Virus record (IMG/VR): IMGVR_UViG_3300021963_000110
Span: 1-64,000 of that record
Strand: one strand, 5' to 3'
DNA: 64,000 bases
DNA from: a virus
Of this stretch, positions 209 to 14,316 are shown piece after piece. The translations under genes and the position numbers were made by a program. The notes below the pieces were generated by a model. That model saw only the letters and a program-made list of their open reading frames with translations, did not search any database and was not told where the DNA came from. The first letter of the stretch is position 1. The number at the start of each line of letters is the position of its first letter.

Positions 209-252
209 CCGAAAACCCTTATCATATCATGGTCTTTTGAATACCCTTACGG

Positions 253-281
253 TTGACACGGATACTAAAAGGTGTTATAAT
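253..281 (+). promoter_or_regulatory. Consensus sigma70-type promoter, rightward
   Basis: TTGACA (253-258) and TATAAT (276-281) are both perfect with a 17-bp spacer. Six bases follow before ATG 288, the same geometry as the divergent promoter at 180-208. It is the likely main promoter of the rightward small-gene operon and predicts a leaderless first gene. Confidence 0.8.
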
Positions 282-287
282 TGTGGC

Positions 288-593
288 ATGATTAGAAAAA
301 AACGCATTGATCGTAAGCACATTGTCTACTGTCTGACTAACGTCGAGACTGGCGACTTCTATATTGGTATTACTCAGGGTTTCAGAAAAAGAGACCTCAA
401 AATACGCGTACAAAAGCACATTAGACGAGCATTGACTGAGCATAAGTCCTGGGCATTATGCGACGCTATAAGGTCCTACGGGGTCTCAGCGTTTGTTGCA
501 CAAGAGCTTGCTGTCATTAGGGGCAAGCGTGAAGCGCATGCTTTGGAAAGATTGCTAATAGGTGAGTTGGCGCCAACATTGAATTCACATTAA
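288..593 (+). CDS. GIY-YIG family nuclease, small
   Basis: A 101-residue protein with the GIY-YIG signature: Val13-Tyr14 (in HIVYCLTN), then Tyr25-Ile26-Gly27 (DFYIG), and a C-terminal AHALERLLIGELAPTLN segment supplying the usual catalytic Glu. This fold cleaves DNA in homing and repair endonucleases; no extra specificity domain is present. The frame is open further upstream, but an ATG at 237 would lie upstream of the -35 box at 253, so I chose ATG 288. No Shine-Dalgarno is well placed before it. It is the first gene of the rightward operon. It could be a free-standing homing nuclease or a host-DNA nuclease; the sequence does not decide. Confidence 0.75.
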   Translation: MIRKKRIDRKHIVYCLTNVETGDFYIGITQGFRKRDLKIRVQKHIRRALTEHKSWALCDAIRSYGVSAFVAQELAVIRGKREAHALERLLIGELAPTLNSH

Positions 594-7950: not shown

Positions 7951-8073
7951 TTAAAAGTTTTGCATCGTTAATGAAGTACTTGTAGCAAGCACAGGCGTAC
8001 CTACTGCTGGCAATTGATAGTTGTCTAAAAAGACAACCCCTCCTAAGATTGTGCAATCATATGAATTTATCAT
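7951..8073 (-). CDS. Hypothetical 40-residue protein
   Basis: The frame MINSYDCTILGGVVFLDNYQ continues with LPAVGTPVLATSTSLTMQNF and a TAA. Its ATG overlaps the TGA of the upstream GIY-YIG gene (ATGA, 8070-8073), and its stop lies six bases before the next start. The GG-V-F pattern resembles the anchors of neighbouring adhesins (such as VTITGGAQF), so it could be a separate anchor or tip peptide. It could also be a remnant of a lost adhesin. Confidence 0.5.
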   Translation of the reverse strand: MINSYDCTILGGVVFLDNYQLPAVGTPVLATSTSLTMQNF

Positions 8074-8480
8074 CTCTGTGTTTCTTTTAAATTCTTGATA
8101 TGAGTTTTATGCACTCGGCATTGCACTTGCCCATTATAATATGCATCTGATTCTAAAACTCGTCTATCCATTTGTTCTCTTGCCTCTAGATAATTGCATA
8201 GTCCTTTGTTAGGACATATATGCAGTATCTCTCTTATAAATTTATCCGCGCCGTGTTTTTCTACATCAGCTTTAACTTCATCAGATGAAGACCAATAATC
8301 TCTCCAATCTGACTCTACTTTTAATCTTTTCTTTTTACCCTTAACTACTTTGGTCTTACGAAACCAGAATAGCTTTTTACCTATATACTTGCGCCCCGTG
8401 GCAGTATTAGTAATCAAGTACACATAACCATATGCATCCTCAGGGATAACTTCTAATTCTTTATTATCGTATAACCACAT
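8070..8480 (-). CDS. GIY-YIG-domain protein
   Basis: 136 residues. The GIY-YIG core YGYVYLITNTATGRKYIGKK (about residues 17-36) is followed by a Lys-rich insert, a WRDYWSSSDEVKADVEKHGADKF segment and a CNYLEAREQMDRRVL helix with the candidate catalytic Glu. This layout recurs in tailed phages and is often listed as a Seg-like or homing-type endonuclease; mobility cannot be shown here. It sits directly behind a perfect late promoter octamer at 8503-8510 and starts the leftward group that ends at 3517. Confidence 0.7.
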   Translation of the reverse strand: MWLYDNKELEVIPEDAYGYVYLITNTATGRKYIGKKLFWFRKTKVVKGKKKRLKVESDWRDYWSSSDEVKADVEKHGADKFIREILHICPNKGLCNYLEAREQMDRRVLESDAYYNGQVQCRVHKTHIKNLKETQR

Positions 8481-9411: not shown

Positions 9412-9875
9412 ATTTTCTCCACTTCAATGTTACATTTATTTAAAAATTCTATACCTTCAGTATTTCTATAACTATTTCTATAAAATACTTTTTTAATGCC
9501 TGCTATATGTATAAGCTTTGCACAATCAAAACACGGTGCATGGGTAATATACATTGTAGCACCTAACCCCGATTCATTAGATTGTGCTAGTTTGCCGATA
9601 GCATTCATTTCTGCATGAATAACCTCGGGCTTTGTCTTTGTACTAATAGTAGTTGTAGGATACTCAGGGCCACCCATGTCAATTATATATGTTGAATGTT
9701 CTTCAATTATATCTTCACAAGTATTATTCCAACCAGCAGGAGTACCGTTGTATCCAATAGATATAATTCTATTATCTTTCTCAACAACAGCACCAACCTG
9801 TAATCTTTTAGCAGAGGATAATTTAGCATAGGTCTCTGCTACAATTATATGAGCATTATCAAATTTATTCGGCAT
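9408..9875 (-). CDS. dCMP deaminase
   Basis: 155 residues from ATG 9875 (MPNKFDNAHI), preceded by GAAGGA at good spacing. The zinc and catalytic motif is His87-Ala-Glu89 with Pro114-Cys115-x2-Cys118. GAVVEKDNRIISIGYNGTPAG and the HAEMNAIGKLA context identify the deoxycytidylate deaminase family. It converts dCMP to dUMP, the substrate of the ThyX encoded at 15979. The start overlaps the upstream zinc-ribbon gene by 11 bases. Confidence 0.85.
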   Translation of the reverse strand: MPNKFDNAHIIVAETYAKLSSAKRLQVGAVVEKDNRIISIGYNGTPAGWNNTCEDIIEEHSTYIIDMGGPEYPTTTISTKTKPEVIHAEMNAIGKLAQSNESGLGATMYITHAPCFDCAKLIHIAGIKKVFYRNSYRNTEGIEFLNKCNIEVEKI

Positions 9876-10044
9876 TCCATTTTCCTTCGGGGCATTTTGT
9901 ATTAGGCAATAATGTCTTTGCCCATATAGAGCAACCACATTTATTACATACCTTAGCACCAATTATAGTAGTAAGGTGTTCACATTCATTACAAATATTT
10001 CTTCGTCTTTCGACAAAAGTTATTACTTTTCTATCTTCACCCAT
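9865..10044 (-). CDS. Zinc-ribbon or metal-binding miniprotein, paralogue of 25965
   Basis: A 59-residue frame from ATG 10044 (MGEDRKVITFVERRRNICNE). Cysteines lie at 18, 21, 33, 36, 38 and 51. The pattern C-x2-C, C-x2-C-x-C, x12-C with the KTLLP-x-x-KCP-x-x-xW ending is shared with the 67-residue protein at 25965. The family is unassigned to me. It overlaps the 4-Cys protein gene upstream and the deaminase gene downstream, so it sits inside the reductase and Fe-S operon. Zinc binding is the simplest reading; Fe-S binding is possible. Confidence 0.65.
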   Translation of the reverse strand: MGEDRKVITFVERRRNICNECEHLTTIIGAKVCNKCGCSIWAKTLLPNTKCPEGKWNAE

Positions 10045-10235
10045 TTTTTACAATAATATTCTGGACGTACTTTAGCGTCCCAAGTTTTACAATACTTTGT
10101 GCCAGGTACATAAGCACCGCAGTTTGCACAATTCTTTTCACCCTTTGCTTTTTCATAAGCTGGTGGCAATTTTGCTGATATTAACGCACCATCAGCATAG
10201 TGTCTCGGTGCGATTACTTCTTTAAATGATTTCAT
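10023..10235 (-). CDS. Small 4-Cys protein, HiPIP-like cysteine pattern
   Basis: 70 residues from ATG 10235, which overlaps the nrdB stop (ATGA). Cysteines are at 36, 39, 49 and 62 in CANCGAYVPGTKYCKTW and YYCKKW. The pattern C-x2-C-x9-C-x12-C-x2-W resembles high-potential iron-sulfur proteins (CANC start, WCxxW end) with a shortened first loop. A zinc site is the alternative. No signal peptide is present, whereas bacterial HiPIPs are periplasmic. Coupling to nrdB and closeness to erpA and iscA make a small redox or Fe-S partner plausible (inference). Confidence 0.65.
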   Translation of the reverse strand: MKSFKEVIAPRHYADGALISAKLPPAYEKAKGEKNCANCGAYVPGTKYCKTWDAKVRPEYYCKKWVKIEK

Positions 10236-11224
10236 TTTTGTTTTGCCCAAACATCTTCCCAGTTACCTGTGTGCGCGGCTTTTGCGTAATCTGTTGCTCT
10301 ATTCTCAAAGAAGTTTGTGTGAATAGGAGCGTTAATCATTTCCTCAACCCAAGGTAGCGGATTTCTTTTAACTTTCATAATACCCTTAAGACCAAGGCTA
10401 ATAAGGCGACGATCAGTAATATAGCGGATGTACTGTTTAACGTCATTAGCGTCCAAATTGTCCATAGGCCCCATAGCGAATGCCAGATCAATAAACCGGT
10501 CCTCGAGTAAAACCATTTGTTCAGCAATTGTATACAGTTGGCCTTTGAGGTCATCGTTCCAAATCTCCGGATTTTCTTGTATATATGTTCTGAATAATTT
10601 AATCATGGACTCACAATGCTGAGTCTCATCTACAATAGACCAAGTAACAATTTGTCCCATGCCCTTCATCTTACCATGACGAGGGAAATTCAACAACATA
10701 ATAAAAGAACTAAACAACTGCATACCTTCAGTAAATGCTGAGAAGATAGCAATATGCTTTGCTGTATTTTCTTTTGTAGTGTTTTGTTGAGATATATCCA
10801 AGACATAGTCATGCTTAGCTTTCATTTCCTCATAAGCTAAAAACTCATTATACATTGTCTCGGGCAATCCCAATGTCTCAATCAAATGAGAATATGCTGC
10901 AATATGCAGAGCTTCGCGTGCTGCAAAGCCTAATAGCATCATTCGTATTTCTGGCTGAGGAAAATAAGGAAGGTAGTTATTGACATACCCGCCAGCAACA
11001 TCAATATCACCTTGTGTAAAGAATCTAAAGATGTGTGTTAAGAATTGTTTTTCTTCAGTCGTTAACTTCTTTTTCCAATCTTTAACATCTTCTACCATTG
11101 GTACTTCAGTATGCAACCAATGGGATTGCTCATGCTTCAACCATGCGTCATACGCCCACGGGTAATTAAAGGGTTTGAAAGAATCTCGTGTATCTGTAAG
11201 ATTCGATTTTGTCTTTTTAATCAT
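10232..11224 (-). CDS. nrdB: Ribonucleotide reductase class Ia small subunit
   Basis: 330 residues. Aligned by spacing to E. coli NrdB, all diiron ligands are present: Asp73, Glu104, His107, Glu166, Glu200 and His203. The radical tyrosine is Tyr111 (EALHIAAYSH), so this is the tyrosyl-radical class Ia type. It generates the radical used by NrdA to make dNDPs. It lies downstream of iscU, iscA, erpA and thioredoxin, separated by them from nrdA. The 3' end is coupled to the small 4-Cys gene by ATGA, and the start overlaps the thioredoxin stop. Confidence 0.93.
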   Translation of the reverse strand: MIKKTKSNLTDTRDSFKPFNYPWAYDAWLKHEQSHWLHTEVPMVEDVKDWKKKLTTEEKQFLTHIFRFFTQGDIDVAGGYVNNYLPYFPQPEIRMMLLGFAAREALHIAAYSHLIETLGLPETMYNEFLAYEEMKAKHDYVLDISQQNTTKENTAKHIAIFSAFTEGMQLFSSFIMLLNFPRHGKMKGMGQIVTWSIVDETQHCESMIKLFRTYIQENPEIWNDDLKGQLYTIAEQMVLLEDRFIDLAFAMGPMDNLDANDVKQYIRYITDRRLISLGLKGIMKVKRNPLPWVEEMINAPIHTNFFENRATDYAKAAHTGNWEDVWAKQK

Positions 11225-11465
11225 TGATGAACTCTTCTACTAAGTTTTTAGCTTTTACGCCTACCATCTTATTTAATACTTGACCATTCTCATCAAGTTT
11301 AACAAGTGTCGGCACTCCCCTGATACCATATTTCATTGCTAACGCTTCATTATCATCTATATCAACAACTTCAATAGGTACATTGGAATCAATGCCTTCC
11401 ATAATACTTGCCAATGCTTTACATGGTTGGCACCATGATGCTGTAAATCTTATTACTTTATTCAT
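11217..11465 (-). CDS. Thioredoxin-like protein
   Basis: 82 residues from ATG 11465, with a GGAG ribosome-binding site; an upstream in-frame start is not supported. The active site is ASWCQPCK (Cys12 and Cys15) and the cis-proline is Pro52 in RGVPTLV. It is shorter than bacterial thioredoxin (about 105), as is usual for phage versions. The likely role is to re-reduce NrdA, whose C-terminal Cys pair is intact. It overlaps nrdB by eight bases. Confidence 0.85.
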   Translation of the reverse strand: MNKVIRFTASWCQPCKALASIMEGIDSNVPIEVVDIDDNEALAMKYGIRGVPTLVKLDENGQVLNKMVGVKAKNLVEEFIND

Positions 11466-11479
11466 TTTTTTATTCTCCG

Positions 11480-11803
11480 TTAAATCGAAAATGAAGAGCC
11501 ACATCCGCAAGTTGATTGCGCATTTGGATTTGTTATTTTAAATTCAGATCCCTGTAGATCTTCCTTATAATCTATACTTGCACCTTGCAAATACTGCATA
11601 CTCATTGCATCAATTAAAACTTTACAATCGCCCAAAGGCACCTCGAAGTCATCTTCGTTCATTATTTCATCAAAGGTAAATCCATAACTAAACCCAGAAC
11701 ATCCCCCACCCTGCACAAATGTTCTTAGTTTTAAATTAGGATTGCCCTCTTCTGCGAAAAGATCTAATATTTTTGCTTTTGCTGATTCTGTTATTGTTAT
11801 CAT
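11480..11803 (-). CDS. erpA: A-type Fe-S carrier, ErpA-like
   Basis: 107 residues from ATG 11803. Three conserved cysteines, Cys35 (GGGCSGF), Cys99 and Cys101 ([11 protein letters not shown]), bind the transferred cluster. The motifs LKLR-x-F, GGGCSGF-x-YGFTFDE and [16 protein letters not shown] match bacterial ErpA almost word for word. It delivers Fe-S clusters from the IscU scaffold to target proteins. The start overlaps the iscA stop (ATGA). The alternative start upstream would lie inside iscA and is unlikely. Confidence 0.9.
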
Positions 11804-12126
11804 ACTCGAAAACTTTCTCCGCAACCACAACGGTCACGTTCATTTGGATTTTTAAAATCAAAGCCTTCATTGAGTCCATTTCGAACCCAATCCATTGTTA
11901 GTCCATTTAGATACACATCATTTTTTTTATTAACAAGAATAACAAAGTCTTGCTGTCCATAATTAATACAGGTATTATCATAATTATAATTATCAACATA
12001 TTCTAATGTGTATGCAAGTCCACTGCAACCAGTAGTCTTCACGCCCAATTGAATTCCAACTCCTTTGCCGCGTTTTTGAAGTAGAGTTTTAATTTTCTCG
12101 CGTGCTTTTTCAGTAAGCAAAATCAT
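11800..12126 (-). CDS. iscA: A-type Fe-S carrier, IscA-like
   Basis: 108 residues. The three cluster cysteines are Cys34 (TGCSGLAY), Cys100 and Cys102 ([10 protein letters not shown]). [18 protein letters not shown] and [12 protein letters not shown] follow bacterial IscA closely, and differ from the ErpA-like product encoded just downstream, so two distinct A-type carriers are present. The order iscU then iscA is that of the bacterial isc operon. The start overlaps the end of iscU by 17 bases. Confidence 0.9.
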
Positions 12127-12502
12127 GTTTTTTTCTATAATCTTCTACTGCCGCTTTGATTGCATCTTCGGCAAGTATTGAGCAATGTATCTTTACTGGG
12201 GGCAATGCTAGTTCTTCGGCGATTTCGGAGTTTTTGATTGATCCGGCTTCGTCAAGGGTTTTTCCTTTGACCCATTCTGTAATGAGGCTCGAACTCGCAA
12301 TAGCCGATCCGCAGCCATACGTTTTAAATTTTGCATCTGTAATAATACCTGTATCATTGTCAACCTTTATTTGTAGTTTCATTACATCGCCGCAAGCTGG
12401 CGCGCCAACCATACCAGTACCAATATCATTATCAGTCTTATCAAAAGATCCGACATTCCTGGGATTTTCATAGTGATCGATTACTTTATTTGAGTATGCC
12501 AT
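12110..12502 (-). CDS. iscU: Fe-S cluster scaffold IscU
   Basis: 130 residues, full length. The cluster ligands Cys37, Cys64 and Cys107 and the key Asp39 (GAPACGD) are present, with the HscA-binding LPPVK (100-104) and His106. MAYSNKVIDHYENPRNVGSF is nearly that of proteobacterial IscU. The protein assembles 2Fe-2S clusters on sulfur supplied by IscS, which is not encoded here, so host IscS, HscA and HscB would be needed. It sits three bases downstream of nrdA. Strong similarity to cellular IscU points to acquisition from a host. Confidence 0.93.
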   Translation of the reverse strand: MAYSNKVIDHYENPRNVGSFDKTDNDIGTGMVGAPACGDVMKLQIKVDNDTGIITDAKFKTYGCGSAIASSSLITEWVKGKTLDEAGSIKNSEIAEELALPPVKIHCSILAEDAIKAAVEDYRKKHDFAY

Positions 12503-12504
12503 GG

Positions 12505-14316
12505 TTAACCTTCACATGCTAAACAAACGTCTTCGGTTGCTAATGCTTTCAAGTCAATCTCTTCCATGACTTGTCGCTCTATTTTCTTTGATATCTTATC
12601 TGCCTTACCAATCTTTTCTGAACGGCAATAGTATAATGTCTTTAAGCCTTGTTTCCACGCTTGAAAGTGAACAGCATGGATATACTTAATATTACTATCG
12701 GGTCTAAAGAATAGATTAACAGATTGTGCTTGATCTATATACTGTTGTCTATCTGCAGAATGTTGAACAACCCAACGCTGGTCAATTTCCATAGATGTTT
12801 TAAATACTTCTTTATCCCAATCAGACAACCAAGTTAAATGCTGTACCGATCCATCATTAGCAATAATTGAAGACCAGATATCATTGTAGTCATTTTGTGA
12901 TACTGTACCACTGTCACTTGAAAGATGCTTTTCAATAACTCTATTTAACCATTTGTTTTTGTTGAGCATTGAACCCGATAAAGTATCTTGTCTATATGCG
13001 TTCGCACGAAGGGGCTCAATAGAAGGGGAAGTATTACCCATAATGATAGAAGAAGAAGCGTTTGGAGCAATAGCAAGCATATGAGAGAAGCGGCGTCCAG
13101 TACCTGCCGCATCGGGTGCTTCGCCTCTTTCGGTACCCAATTGAATATTTGCATTATCTAGTTCCTTGCGAATGTGACCGAATATCTTATGGTTCAATCC
13201 TGTTGCTGATGCCGATTCCCATGGGATGCTTTTCTTTTGTAAAAGAGCATGCCAACCGAGAGCACCAATACCAATAGACCGTTCGCGAATAGCAGAATAT
13301 CGTGCGCGTGATATGCTATCAGGAGCATTATCAATGAAATACTGCAAGACGTTATCGAGCATCTCTGCAACGTCCCGAAGAAAAAGTCTGTCATCTTTCC
13401 AATCATCGTAATACTCCAAGTTCAAAGAGGATAAGCAACATACCGCAGTACGATCTTTATCCGTAGGTAAAATAATTTCACTGCACAAATTAGATTGTTT
13501 AATACTTAGTCCCAGTTTCTTTTGGAACTCAGGCATTGCTCTATTGCTACTATCAATAAAATGTAGATAGGGCTCACCTGTTTGCATACGCATATCTAAA
13601 ATACGTTGCCATAATTCTCTTGCTGACACTTTATCTCTAACTTCGCCATTGTGAGGATCTTTTAATTCCCATGTGTCATCCATCTCGGGATCAATCATTG
13701 CACGTTCAATTAAATGCATAAAATCATCAGTGATATTAATACCGTGATGCAAATTCAAACAACGCATATTGGGATCGCCTGTTGGCTTTCTCATCTCTAG
13801 AAAAATAAGAATGTCCGGATGAGAAATATCAAGATAAGCGGCATAGCTACCACGACGAGTCCTACCTTGTCTATAAGCGAGAGATGATGCGTCATATGTG
13901 CGAAGGTGGGGCATGACTCCAACCGATTTATCATCCGATGAACGTATTCCGATACCAATTCCAACTCCTCCACCCATCATGGATAACCAATTTACTTCGG
14001 CCAGACAATCGACCAAACCTTCTGCACTATCATGTAGATAAGGTAAAAAACATGATATAGGAAGGCCACGCTTACTACGCCCAAAGCTGAGAATAGGAGT
14101 AGAATAAGACAACCAATGTCTACTGCTGTACTCATAAAGTCTTTGCGAATGTTCTCGATTTGACCCGAACGTCTTGGAAACATATGCGAACCTTTCTTGC
14201 GGTGAGACCTCATCCTCCTTCATATAGCTTTCTTTTAATCTTTTAATACCTAGCTCGTCAAATAGACTATCTCTAGAATAGTCGACATTAATCCCATGCA
14301 CAATTTCTTGCGTCAT
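12505..14316 (-). CDS. nrdA: Ribonucleotide reductase class I large subunit, short form
   Basis: 603 residues, against about 750-760 for E. coli and T4 NrdA. The N-terminal ATP-cone is missing, so dATP inhibition through that domain is not expected. The catalytic radical Cys278 sits in NLCSE with Asn276 and Glu280. Cys89 and Cys293/294 supply the active-site disulfide, LYYCRS gives the radical-transfer tyrosine pair, and the C-terminal shuttle cysteines are Cys598 and Cys601 (CLACEG). It reduces NDPs to dNDPs with NrdB. A GGAG ribosome-binding site lies five bases upstream of ATG 14316. iscU follows after two bases. Confidence 0.92.
   Translation of the reverse strand: MTQEIVHGINVDYSRDSLFDELGIKRLKESYMKEDEVSPQERFAYVSKTFGSNREHSQRLYEYSSRHWLSYSTPILSFGRSKRGLPISCFLPYLHDSAEGLVDCLAEVNWLSMMGGGVGIGIGIRSSDDKSVGVMPHLRTYDASSLAYRQGRTRRGSYAAYLDISHPDILIFLEMRKPTGDPNMRCLNLHHGINITDDFMHLIERAMIDPEMDDTWELKDPHNGEVRDKVSARELWQRILDMRMQTGEPYLHFIDSSNRAMPEFQKKLGLSIKQSNLCSEIILPTDKDRTAVCCLSSLNLEYYDDWKDDRLFLRDVAEMLDNVLQYFIDNAPDSISRARYSAIRERSIGIGALGWHALLQKKSIPWESASATGLNHKIFGHIRKELDNANIQLGTERGEAPDAAGTGRRFSHMLAIAPNASSSIIMGNTSPSIEPLRANAYRQDTLSGSMLNKNKWLNRVIEKHLSSDSGTVSQNDYNDIWSSIIANDGSVQHLTWLSDWDKEVFKTSMEIDQRWVVQHSADRQQYIDQAQSVNLFFRPDSNIKYIHAVHFQAWKQGLKTLYYCRSEKIGKADKISKKIERQVMEEIDLKALATEDVCLACEG

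What the first reader, a model, noticed from the sequence alone, without database searches (positions are those of the whole stretch)
10023..14316. A phage Fe-S assembly set (iscU, iscA, erpA) placed between nrdA and nrdB
Scaffold and two distinct A-type carriers have all ligand cysteines and read like proteobacterial proteins. They lie between the two reductase subunit genes, with thioredoxin, and just ahead of nrdB and a 4-Cys protein coupled to it by ATGA. No IscS is visible, so host sulfur delivery is needed. I propose a mobile iron-cofactor module that keeps the diiron NrdB or a redox partner supplied while host synthesis fails. Single Fe-S genes have been reported in aquatic viromes; this linked arrangement looks unusual.
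Basis: partly seen in the sequence, partly recalled or inferred. Interest (0 to 1): 0.85.

Follow-up and report, generated by a model that had tools for sequence, protein, structure and literature searches.

The report
Phage iron-sulfur cassette inside reductase operon
A freshwater-type tailed phage carries a movable three-gene kit for building and handing over iron-sulfur clusters, inserted cleanly between the genes for its DNA-precursor enzyme, and the same kit recurs in this neighbourhood in many other phages, although which enzyme it serves is not yet shown.

Summary
Confirmed. On the minus strand, nrdA, iscU, iscA, erpA, trx, nrdB and a 4-Cys gene form a tightly packed operon in a tailed phage. 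All ligand and catalytic residues are kept, and no desulfurase is found in the 68-kb record.

The linkage is not a one-off. iscU, iscA or erpA lie between nrdA and nrdB in several arrangements, in phages with two very different reductase types. On one NrdB tree the trait changes at least 11 times. Near relatives lack the trio at an exact empty site (nrdA stop, then trx start). Between two lineages the iscA/erpA DNA is 98% identical while nrdA and nrdB are 88-90%, so the trio moves as a cassette. The 4-Cys protein resembles a high-potential iron-sulfur protein and accompanies nrdB.

Best reading: a mobile Fe-S delivery relay (IscU to IscA to ErpA) that plugs into host IscS/HscBA and is co-expressed with the reductase. 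A role dedicated to diiron NrdB is not shown: most nrdB phages lack the trio, some trio phages show no class I reductase, the gap takes other inserts, and large trio-bearing phages encode many radical-SAM enzymes. Phage iscU and A-type carriers were known; the mobile trio inside the reductase operon looks new.

The parts
12505..14316 (-). nrdA, class I ribonucleotide reductase large subunit, 603 aa, without N-terminal ATP-cone; catalytic Cys and C-terminal CxxC kept
11470..12504 (-). mobile cassette of about 1,035 bp: exactly iscU-iscA-erpA plus a few bases; absent in close relatives, where the nrdA stop is followed after 3-4 nt by the trx ATG
12110..12502 (-). iscU, Fe-S scaffold, 130 aa; C37, D39, C63, H105, C106 and the LPPVK motif for HscA kept
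11800..12126 (-). iscA, A-type carrier of ATC-II type, 108 aa; three ligand Cys kept; overlaps iscU by 17 nt
11480..11803 (-). erpA, A-type carrier of ATC-I type, 107 aa from the ATG at 11803; overlaps iscA by ATGA
11217..11465 (-). thioredoxin-like protein (CxPC), 82 aa from the ATG at 11465; present with or without the cassette
10232..11224 (-). nrdB, class I small subunit, 330 aa; diiron ligands and radical Tyr kept
10023..10235 (-). 70-aa 4-Cys protein, HiPIP-like (profile match to PDB 3h31 at E 1.3e-4; one homologue matches PF01355 at 5.9e-5); ATGA-coupled to nrdB
9865..10044 (-). zinc-ribbon-like protein (DUF6171-like, below cut-off), overlaps the 4-Cys gene

Best explanation
The three genes form a mobile phage cassette that encodes the delivery half of the proteobacterial ISC pathway: scaffold (IscU), receiving carrier (IscA, ATC-II) and delivering carrier (ErpA, ATC-I). 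The phage record supplies no desulfurase, so host IscS would load sulfur onto phage IscU. Host HscA/HscB would act through the kept LPPVK motif, and clusters would pass from IscU to IscA to ErpA to apo-proteins. Placed in the nrdA-trx-nrdB operon, the set is presumably made together with the reductase, when host synthesis is failing. The likely clients are several: phage Fe-S proteins (the HiPIP-like protein translationally coupled to nrdB, and radical-SAM enzymes in the larger relatives) and host Fe-S enzymes that must keep working. Shown: gene content, intact ligands, purifying selection, operon geometry, mobility, recurrence near nrd. Inferred: activity, use of host IscS/HscBA, co-expression and client identity.
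For: Families over curated cut-offs for IscU and ErpA. All ligands and LPPVK kept in 147 of 147 phage IscU; carrier cysteines kept in 142 of 142 and 82 of 82. dN/dS of the three genes 0.02-0.23. Operon overlaps. Exact empty site. Cassette iscA/erpA dS 0.06-0.08 against flank dS 0.46 (nrdA) and 0.79 (nrdB). The same trio, 84% identical over 1,027 nt, lies in L007/L166/L167 with no nrd gene found in the fetched stretch. erpA, iscA and iscU occur together in 70 of 80 erpA loci, whereas bacterial erpA is not clustered with Fe-S genes (Vinella 2009, PMC2682760; no erpA beside 80 bacterial isc loci). The aerobic relay IscU-IscA-ErpA is published for E. coli (PMC2682760). Close to nrdB in 19 lineages, Fisher p 2e-11, or 3e-7 for 12 contigs of 50 kb or more. 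HiPIP-like partner within 1 kb of nrdB in 55 of 55 copies whose locus holds nrdB. Up to 19 radical-SAM genes in large isc-bearing phage contigs.
Against: No biochemical data. The uniform-placement null ignores that phage metabolic genes cluster by expression time, and the lineages were grouped by eye. No radical-SAM gene lies in the 68-kb record itself. The IscU tree is poorly resolved. The HiPIP assignment rests on a short profile match, and the AlphaFold model found no fold match.
Confidence: 0.6

Rival explanations
1. Reductase-dedicated module: the cassette serves NrdB itself, by supplying iron or by maturing an Fe-S electron donor (the HiPIP-like protein, or the host's YfaE-type ferredoxin) that assembles or repairs the diferric-tyrosyl cofactor.
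For: Position inside the operon, at least 11 changes of the trait on one NrdB tree, presence in two reductase types, HiPIP-like gene ATGA-coupled to nrdB and beside it wherever nrdB is seen, kept diiron and Tyr sites. In E. coli the ferredoxin YfaE maintains the NrdB cofactor (Wu 2007, cited in PMC8463856).
Against: Isc in the gap in only 8 of 65 window-type and 4 of 74 T4-type nrdA-nrdB pairs. Trio carriers without NrdB in the record, including 128 kb and 80 kb contigs. No Fer2 ferredoxin in 50 records. The HiPIP-like gene stays with nrdB when the cassette is absent. A scaffold plus both carriers is the route to general apo-targets, not a known NrdB route.
Confidence: 0.2
2. Expression slot only: the space between nrdA and nrdB is a tolerant landing place in an early, highly expressed operon, and the cassette lies there for timing or by recombination at shared flanks, with no functional tie to the reductase.
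For: The gap also holds trx, a BPL_N-like family (32 copies), an unnamed 211-aa family (25), nuclease-like, aldolase-like and oxygenase-like genes. The trio also sits elsewhere (L007, L167; distances of 15 and 38 kb in G013 and G036). In Phage C48C1 (OQ984149) iscU is near the DnaB helicase gene with no nrd gene annotated within 15 kb.
Against: Proximity to nrdB in 19 lineages beyond uniform placement. Repeated entry in several arrangements and two reductase types. Clean in-operon insertion with coding overlaps.
Confidence: 0.3
3. Mis-binned bacterial DNA: the genes are a host isc operon in a contig wrongly called viral.
For: IscU is 84-89% identical to Comamonadaceae IscU.
Against: All 80 bacterial loci have iscS and/or hscB/hscA around iscU; no phage locus has that set. 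Flanks are phage nrd genes and tail genes. The empty site lies between phage genes.
Confidence: 0.01

Closest known systems
Fe-S assembly genes of marine phage genomes (Nishimura et al. 2017, PMC5332604)
   Same: T4-like environmental phages with IscU and A-type carriers, some with many radical-SAM genes; proteobacterial origin
   Different: The passages read do not mention reductase linkage, a three-gene cassette, an empty site, a HiPIP-like partner or Burkholderiales-type proteins; the terms nrdA and ribonucleotide reductase do not occur in the text
HMO-2011-type phage genomes with iscU and erpA (PMC9038755)
   Same: iscU and erpA in phages that also have a reductase
   Different: No linkage to the reductase and no mobile trio is described in the passages read
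Bacterial isc operon (iscR-iscS-iscU-iscA-hscB-hscA-fdx)
   Same: IscU and IscA homologous in sequence and motifs
   Different: Phage set lacks iscS, hscB, hscA and fdx and adds erpA, which bacteria keep elsewhere
E. coli nrdA-nrdB-yfaE operon
   Same: Reductase genes followed by a small putative Fe-S electron carrier
   Different: Phage carrier is HiPIP-like rather than a Fer2 [2Fe-2S] ferredoxin; the yfaE position is from general knowledge

Membership tests
ISC scaffold IscU | Over curated cut-off of TIGR01999 | tested here: met
   225.4 bits, cut-off 192.4
ISC scaffold IscU | Cluster ligands C37, D39, C63, H105, C106 and LPPVK motif | tested here: met
   147 of 147 phage sequences
ISC scaffold IscU | Builds clusters with IscS | not testable with these tools
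   no biochemistry; no IscS-family gene in the record
Complete ISC system | iscS, hscB, hscA and fdx present | tested here: not met
   not found beside phage iscU; IscS family absent from G000, Fer2 absent
A-type carrier ErpA (ATC-I) | Over cut-off of NF010147; three Cys | tested here: met
   163 bits, cut-off 117
A-type carrier IscA (ATC-II) | Over cut-off of TIGR02011 | tested here: not met
   127.7 bits against 150.6; still its best family, all three Cys kept, and over the cut-off of the wider TIGR00049
Class I ribonucleotide reductase, diiron-Tyr type | Diiron ligands, radical Tyr, NrdA catalytic Cys | tested here: met
HiPIP | Four-Cys motif and sequence match to HiPIP | tested here: inconclusive
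   PDB 3h31 at E 1.3e-4 with the Cys aligned; one homologue matches PF01355 at 5.9e-5, the window protein itself does not; no fold match
Mobile gene cassette | Empty site in related flanks and discordant divergence | tested here: met

The most novel reading that the evidence does not exclude
These phages carry a self-contained reductase activation pathway: a HiPIP-like protein translationally coupled to nrdB gives the electron needed to assemble or repair the diferric-tyrosyl cofactor, and the mobile IscU-IscA-ErpA cassette matures that carrier during infection.
Probability: 0.12. Interest if true: 0.85.

Novelty: new variant of a known kind. Interest (0 to 1): 0.6.

Why it matters
Fe-S genes in phages have been noted without a gene context that suggests a client. 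A recurrent, mobile, three-step delivery set inside the reductase operon, with an Fe-S-like protein coupled to nrdB, gives a concrete and testable place where phages may control iron cofactors. It also bears on the open question of how class I reductases get their iron and electrons in the cell, and it joins ErpA to its scaffold in one transcription unit, which bacteria generally do not do.

Tried and rejected
HiPIP-like motif as a general feature of all isc phages: a pattern scan over 80 loci found it only in near relatives. A close relative of the trio in deposited phage records: most hits are unannotated records or contigs that look bacterial by reading, and none is a close relative. Fold search for the 4-Cys protein gave nothing. 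Literature search for nrd plus isc linkage gave no report; one apparent hit (PMC9531940) did not contain the term in its main text. Naming a single donor from the IscU tree was dropped because support is poor. The Hsp70 hits near isc in T4-type loci begin like DnaK (my reading; not tested against HscA), so they were not counted as part of the module. An iron theme of the nrdA-nrdB gap was dropped because most other inserts have no iron link.
Full report
WHAT IS THERE. The window is the first 64,000 bases of a 68,219-base virus record with baseplate wedge, tail-fibre and virion structural families. On the minus strand lie, in order of transcription, nrdA (12505-14316), iscU (12110-12502), iscA (11800-12126), erpA (ATG at 11803 to 11480), trx (ATG at 11465 to 11217), nrdB (10232-11224), a 4-Cys gene (ATG at 10235 to 10023) and a zinc-ribbon-like gene. 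Spacing is 2 nt, then overlaps of 17 and 4 nt, a 14-nt gap, and overlaps of 8 and 4 nt (coordinates), so this reads as one operon with translational coupling. No promoter evidence was sought.

INTACT PROTEINS. IscU and ErpA pass curated cut-offs; IscA is best described by TIGR02011 but falls below its cut-off. Every phage IscU examined keeps the cluster ligands and the LPPVK motif by which E. coli HscA binds IscU (general knowledge), and every carrier keeps its three cysteines. NrdB keeps the diiron ligands and the radical tyrosine, and NrdA its catalytic cysteines. dN/dS of the three isc genes is 0.02-0.23 where it can be computed.

NO SULFUR SOURCE. The aminotransferase family of IscS/SufS is absent from the record, and hscB, hscA and fdx are not found beside phage iscU. 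All 80 bacterial IscU loci, from Burkholderiales and mostly Comamonadaceae at 84-89% identity, have iscS and/or the hscB-hscA genes around iscU. ErpA is 60-73% identical to its best match in 29 of 30 of those genomes.

RECURRENCE. Scans of IMG/VR with IscU, NrdB, ErpA and a T4-type NrdB show isc genes strictly between nrdA and nrdB in these arrangements: iscU-iscA-erpA, iscU-erpA-iscA, erpA-iscU-iscA, iscU-iscA, iscU-erpA, and single iscU or erpA. This holds for two reductase types whose NrdB share only about 20% identity. On a tree of 111 window-type NrdB the trait 'isc in the gap' changes at least 11 times and 'isc in the locus' at least 20 times; the count cannot tell gain from loss, and truncated loci inflate it somewhat. 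In sets chosen by NrdB alone, isc lies in the gap in 8 of 65 (window type) and 4 of 74 (T4 type, with 26 more elsewhere in the fetched stretch). In 19 lineages with both genes in one contig, the distance is shorter than uniform placement would give (Fisher p 2e-11; 3e-7 for 12 contigs of 50 kb or more). This null is simple: it does not allow for clustering of early genes, and the lineages were grouped by eye.

MOBILITY. L357, L365, L085 and L361 (sequences shown), and L359, L367 and L404 by the same interval length, have the nrdA stop followed after 3-4 nt by the trx start; the window has about 1,035 extra bases there that hold exactly the trio, with the aligned flanks 73-95% identical. Between the window and L003/L165 the iscA and erpA DNA is 98% identical (dS 0.06-0.08), while nrdA is 90% (dS 0.46), nrdB 88% (dS 0.79) and trx 78%. 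The cassette therefore moved, or was replaced, after these lineages split; iscU itself is 94% (dS 0.30), so the exchanged tract may begin inside it. Window nrdB and trx are nearer to an empty-site relative (L357) than to the cassette-bearing L003. The same trio is found at 84% over 1,027 nt in L007, L166 and L167, where no reductase gene was found in the fetched stretch.

THE 4-CYS PROTEIN. Its four cysteines are invariant. A profile of 11 homologues matches a high-potential iron-sulfur protein of known structure (3h31) at E 1.3e-4, with two further HiPIP-type chains among the five hits listed, and one homologue matches Pfam HIPIP at 5.9e-5. The AlphaFold model (mean pLDDT 79 in the best of five, the others below 50) has no significant PDB match, so a zinc protein is not excluded. 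In all 55 copies where nrdB is in the same locus it lies within 1 kb of nrdB, with or without the isc trio; 14 copies lie in loci where no nrdB is seen. It goes with nrdB rather than with the trio.

MECHANISM. In E. coli under air, IscA receives clusters from IscU and passes them to ErpA, which serves apo-proteins, and the gene context of proteobacterial erpA-type genes is devoid of Fe-S assembly genes (Vinella et al. 2009, PMC2682760). The phage has put this relay into one unit: erpA, iscA and iscU occur together in 70 of 80 erpA loci. The most economical reading is a delivery booster that depends on host IscS and HscA/HscB and is made with the reductase. Clients are inferred. Large isc-bearing contigs carry many radical-SAM genes (19 matches in a 347-kb contig, 14 in 342 kb, 6 in the 222-kb contig G044, which has the window-type operon). 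Of 10 contigs of 80 kb or more with an isc gene, 7 have a radical-SAM match; of 6 without, 1 does (my count with one contig per obvious lineage; small numbers). The window record itself has none. A role for NrdB alone is possible through an Fe-S electron donor but is not shown, and isc genes occur in records without a NrdB match; such records may be fragments.

KNOWN OR NEW. Phage IscU and A-type carriers, and the idea that they feed phage Fe-S enzymes, are published (Nishimura 2017, PMC5332604; also PMC9038755 and PMC10580990). I found no report of the link to nrdA/nrdB, of the mobile trio, or of the HiPIP-like neighbour in the open-access library; subscription papers are mostly not held. Verdict: real, recurrent, a new variant of a known kind; the functional tie to the reductase stays open.

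Noticed in passing
L034:6517-9852 and L405-L410 (contigs up to 245,550 bases): Phage operon of sufC-like ABC ATPase, SufB/D core protein, SufS-like aminotransferase, iscU, iscA: some phages carry SUF-type machinery too. By reading, the SufS-like protein keeps the PLP lysine but seems to lack the usual catalytic Cys (GHLNARP in place of GHHCAQP). L411-L413 hold more distant copies.
   Followed up: partly
G005, G012, G006, G008 (records behind L041, L067, L042, L053): 9 to 19 radical-SAM matches per contig in phage contigs that also carry iscU and iscA.
   Followed up: partly
L417:19050-20978, L450:18702-20603, L474:11193-13064: Phage-encoded Hsp70 (begins like DnaK) several kb downstream of iscU-iscA in T4-type loci.
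   Followed up: no
L087:3104-3751 and L117:942-1577: Two frequent inserts of about 212 aa between nrdA and nrdB: one BPL_N-like (32 copies), one without a Pfam match (25 copies).
   Followed up: partly
window 4349-63948, minus strand: Most of the window is a long array of large fibre-like proteins (up to 2,911 aa), with glycine-rich and repeated Calx-beta-like stretches by reading.
   Followed up: no
window 237-593 (+) and 8070-8480 (-): The first matches homing-endonuclease families with a GIY-YIG motif; the second looks similar by reading. They lie on either side of the tail-fibre genes downstream of the operon.
   Followed up: no
G036:C1:44527-44898: IscU frame with one internal TAA in a 95.7-kb contig whose isc genes lie 38 kb from nrdB: a possible decaying copy.
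   Followed up: no
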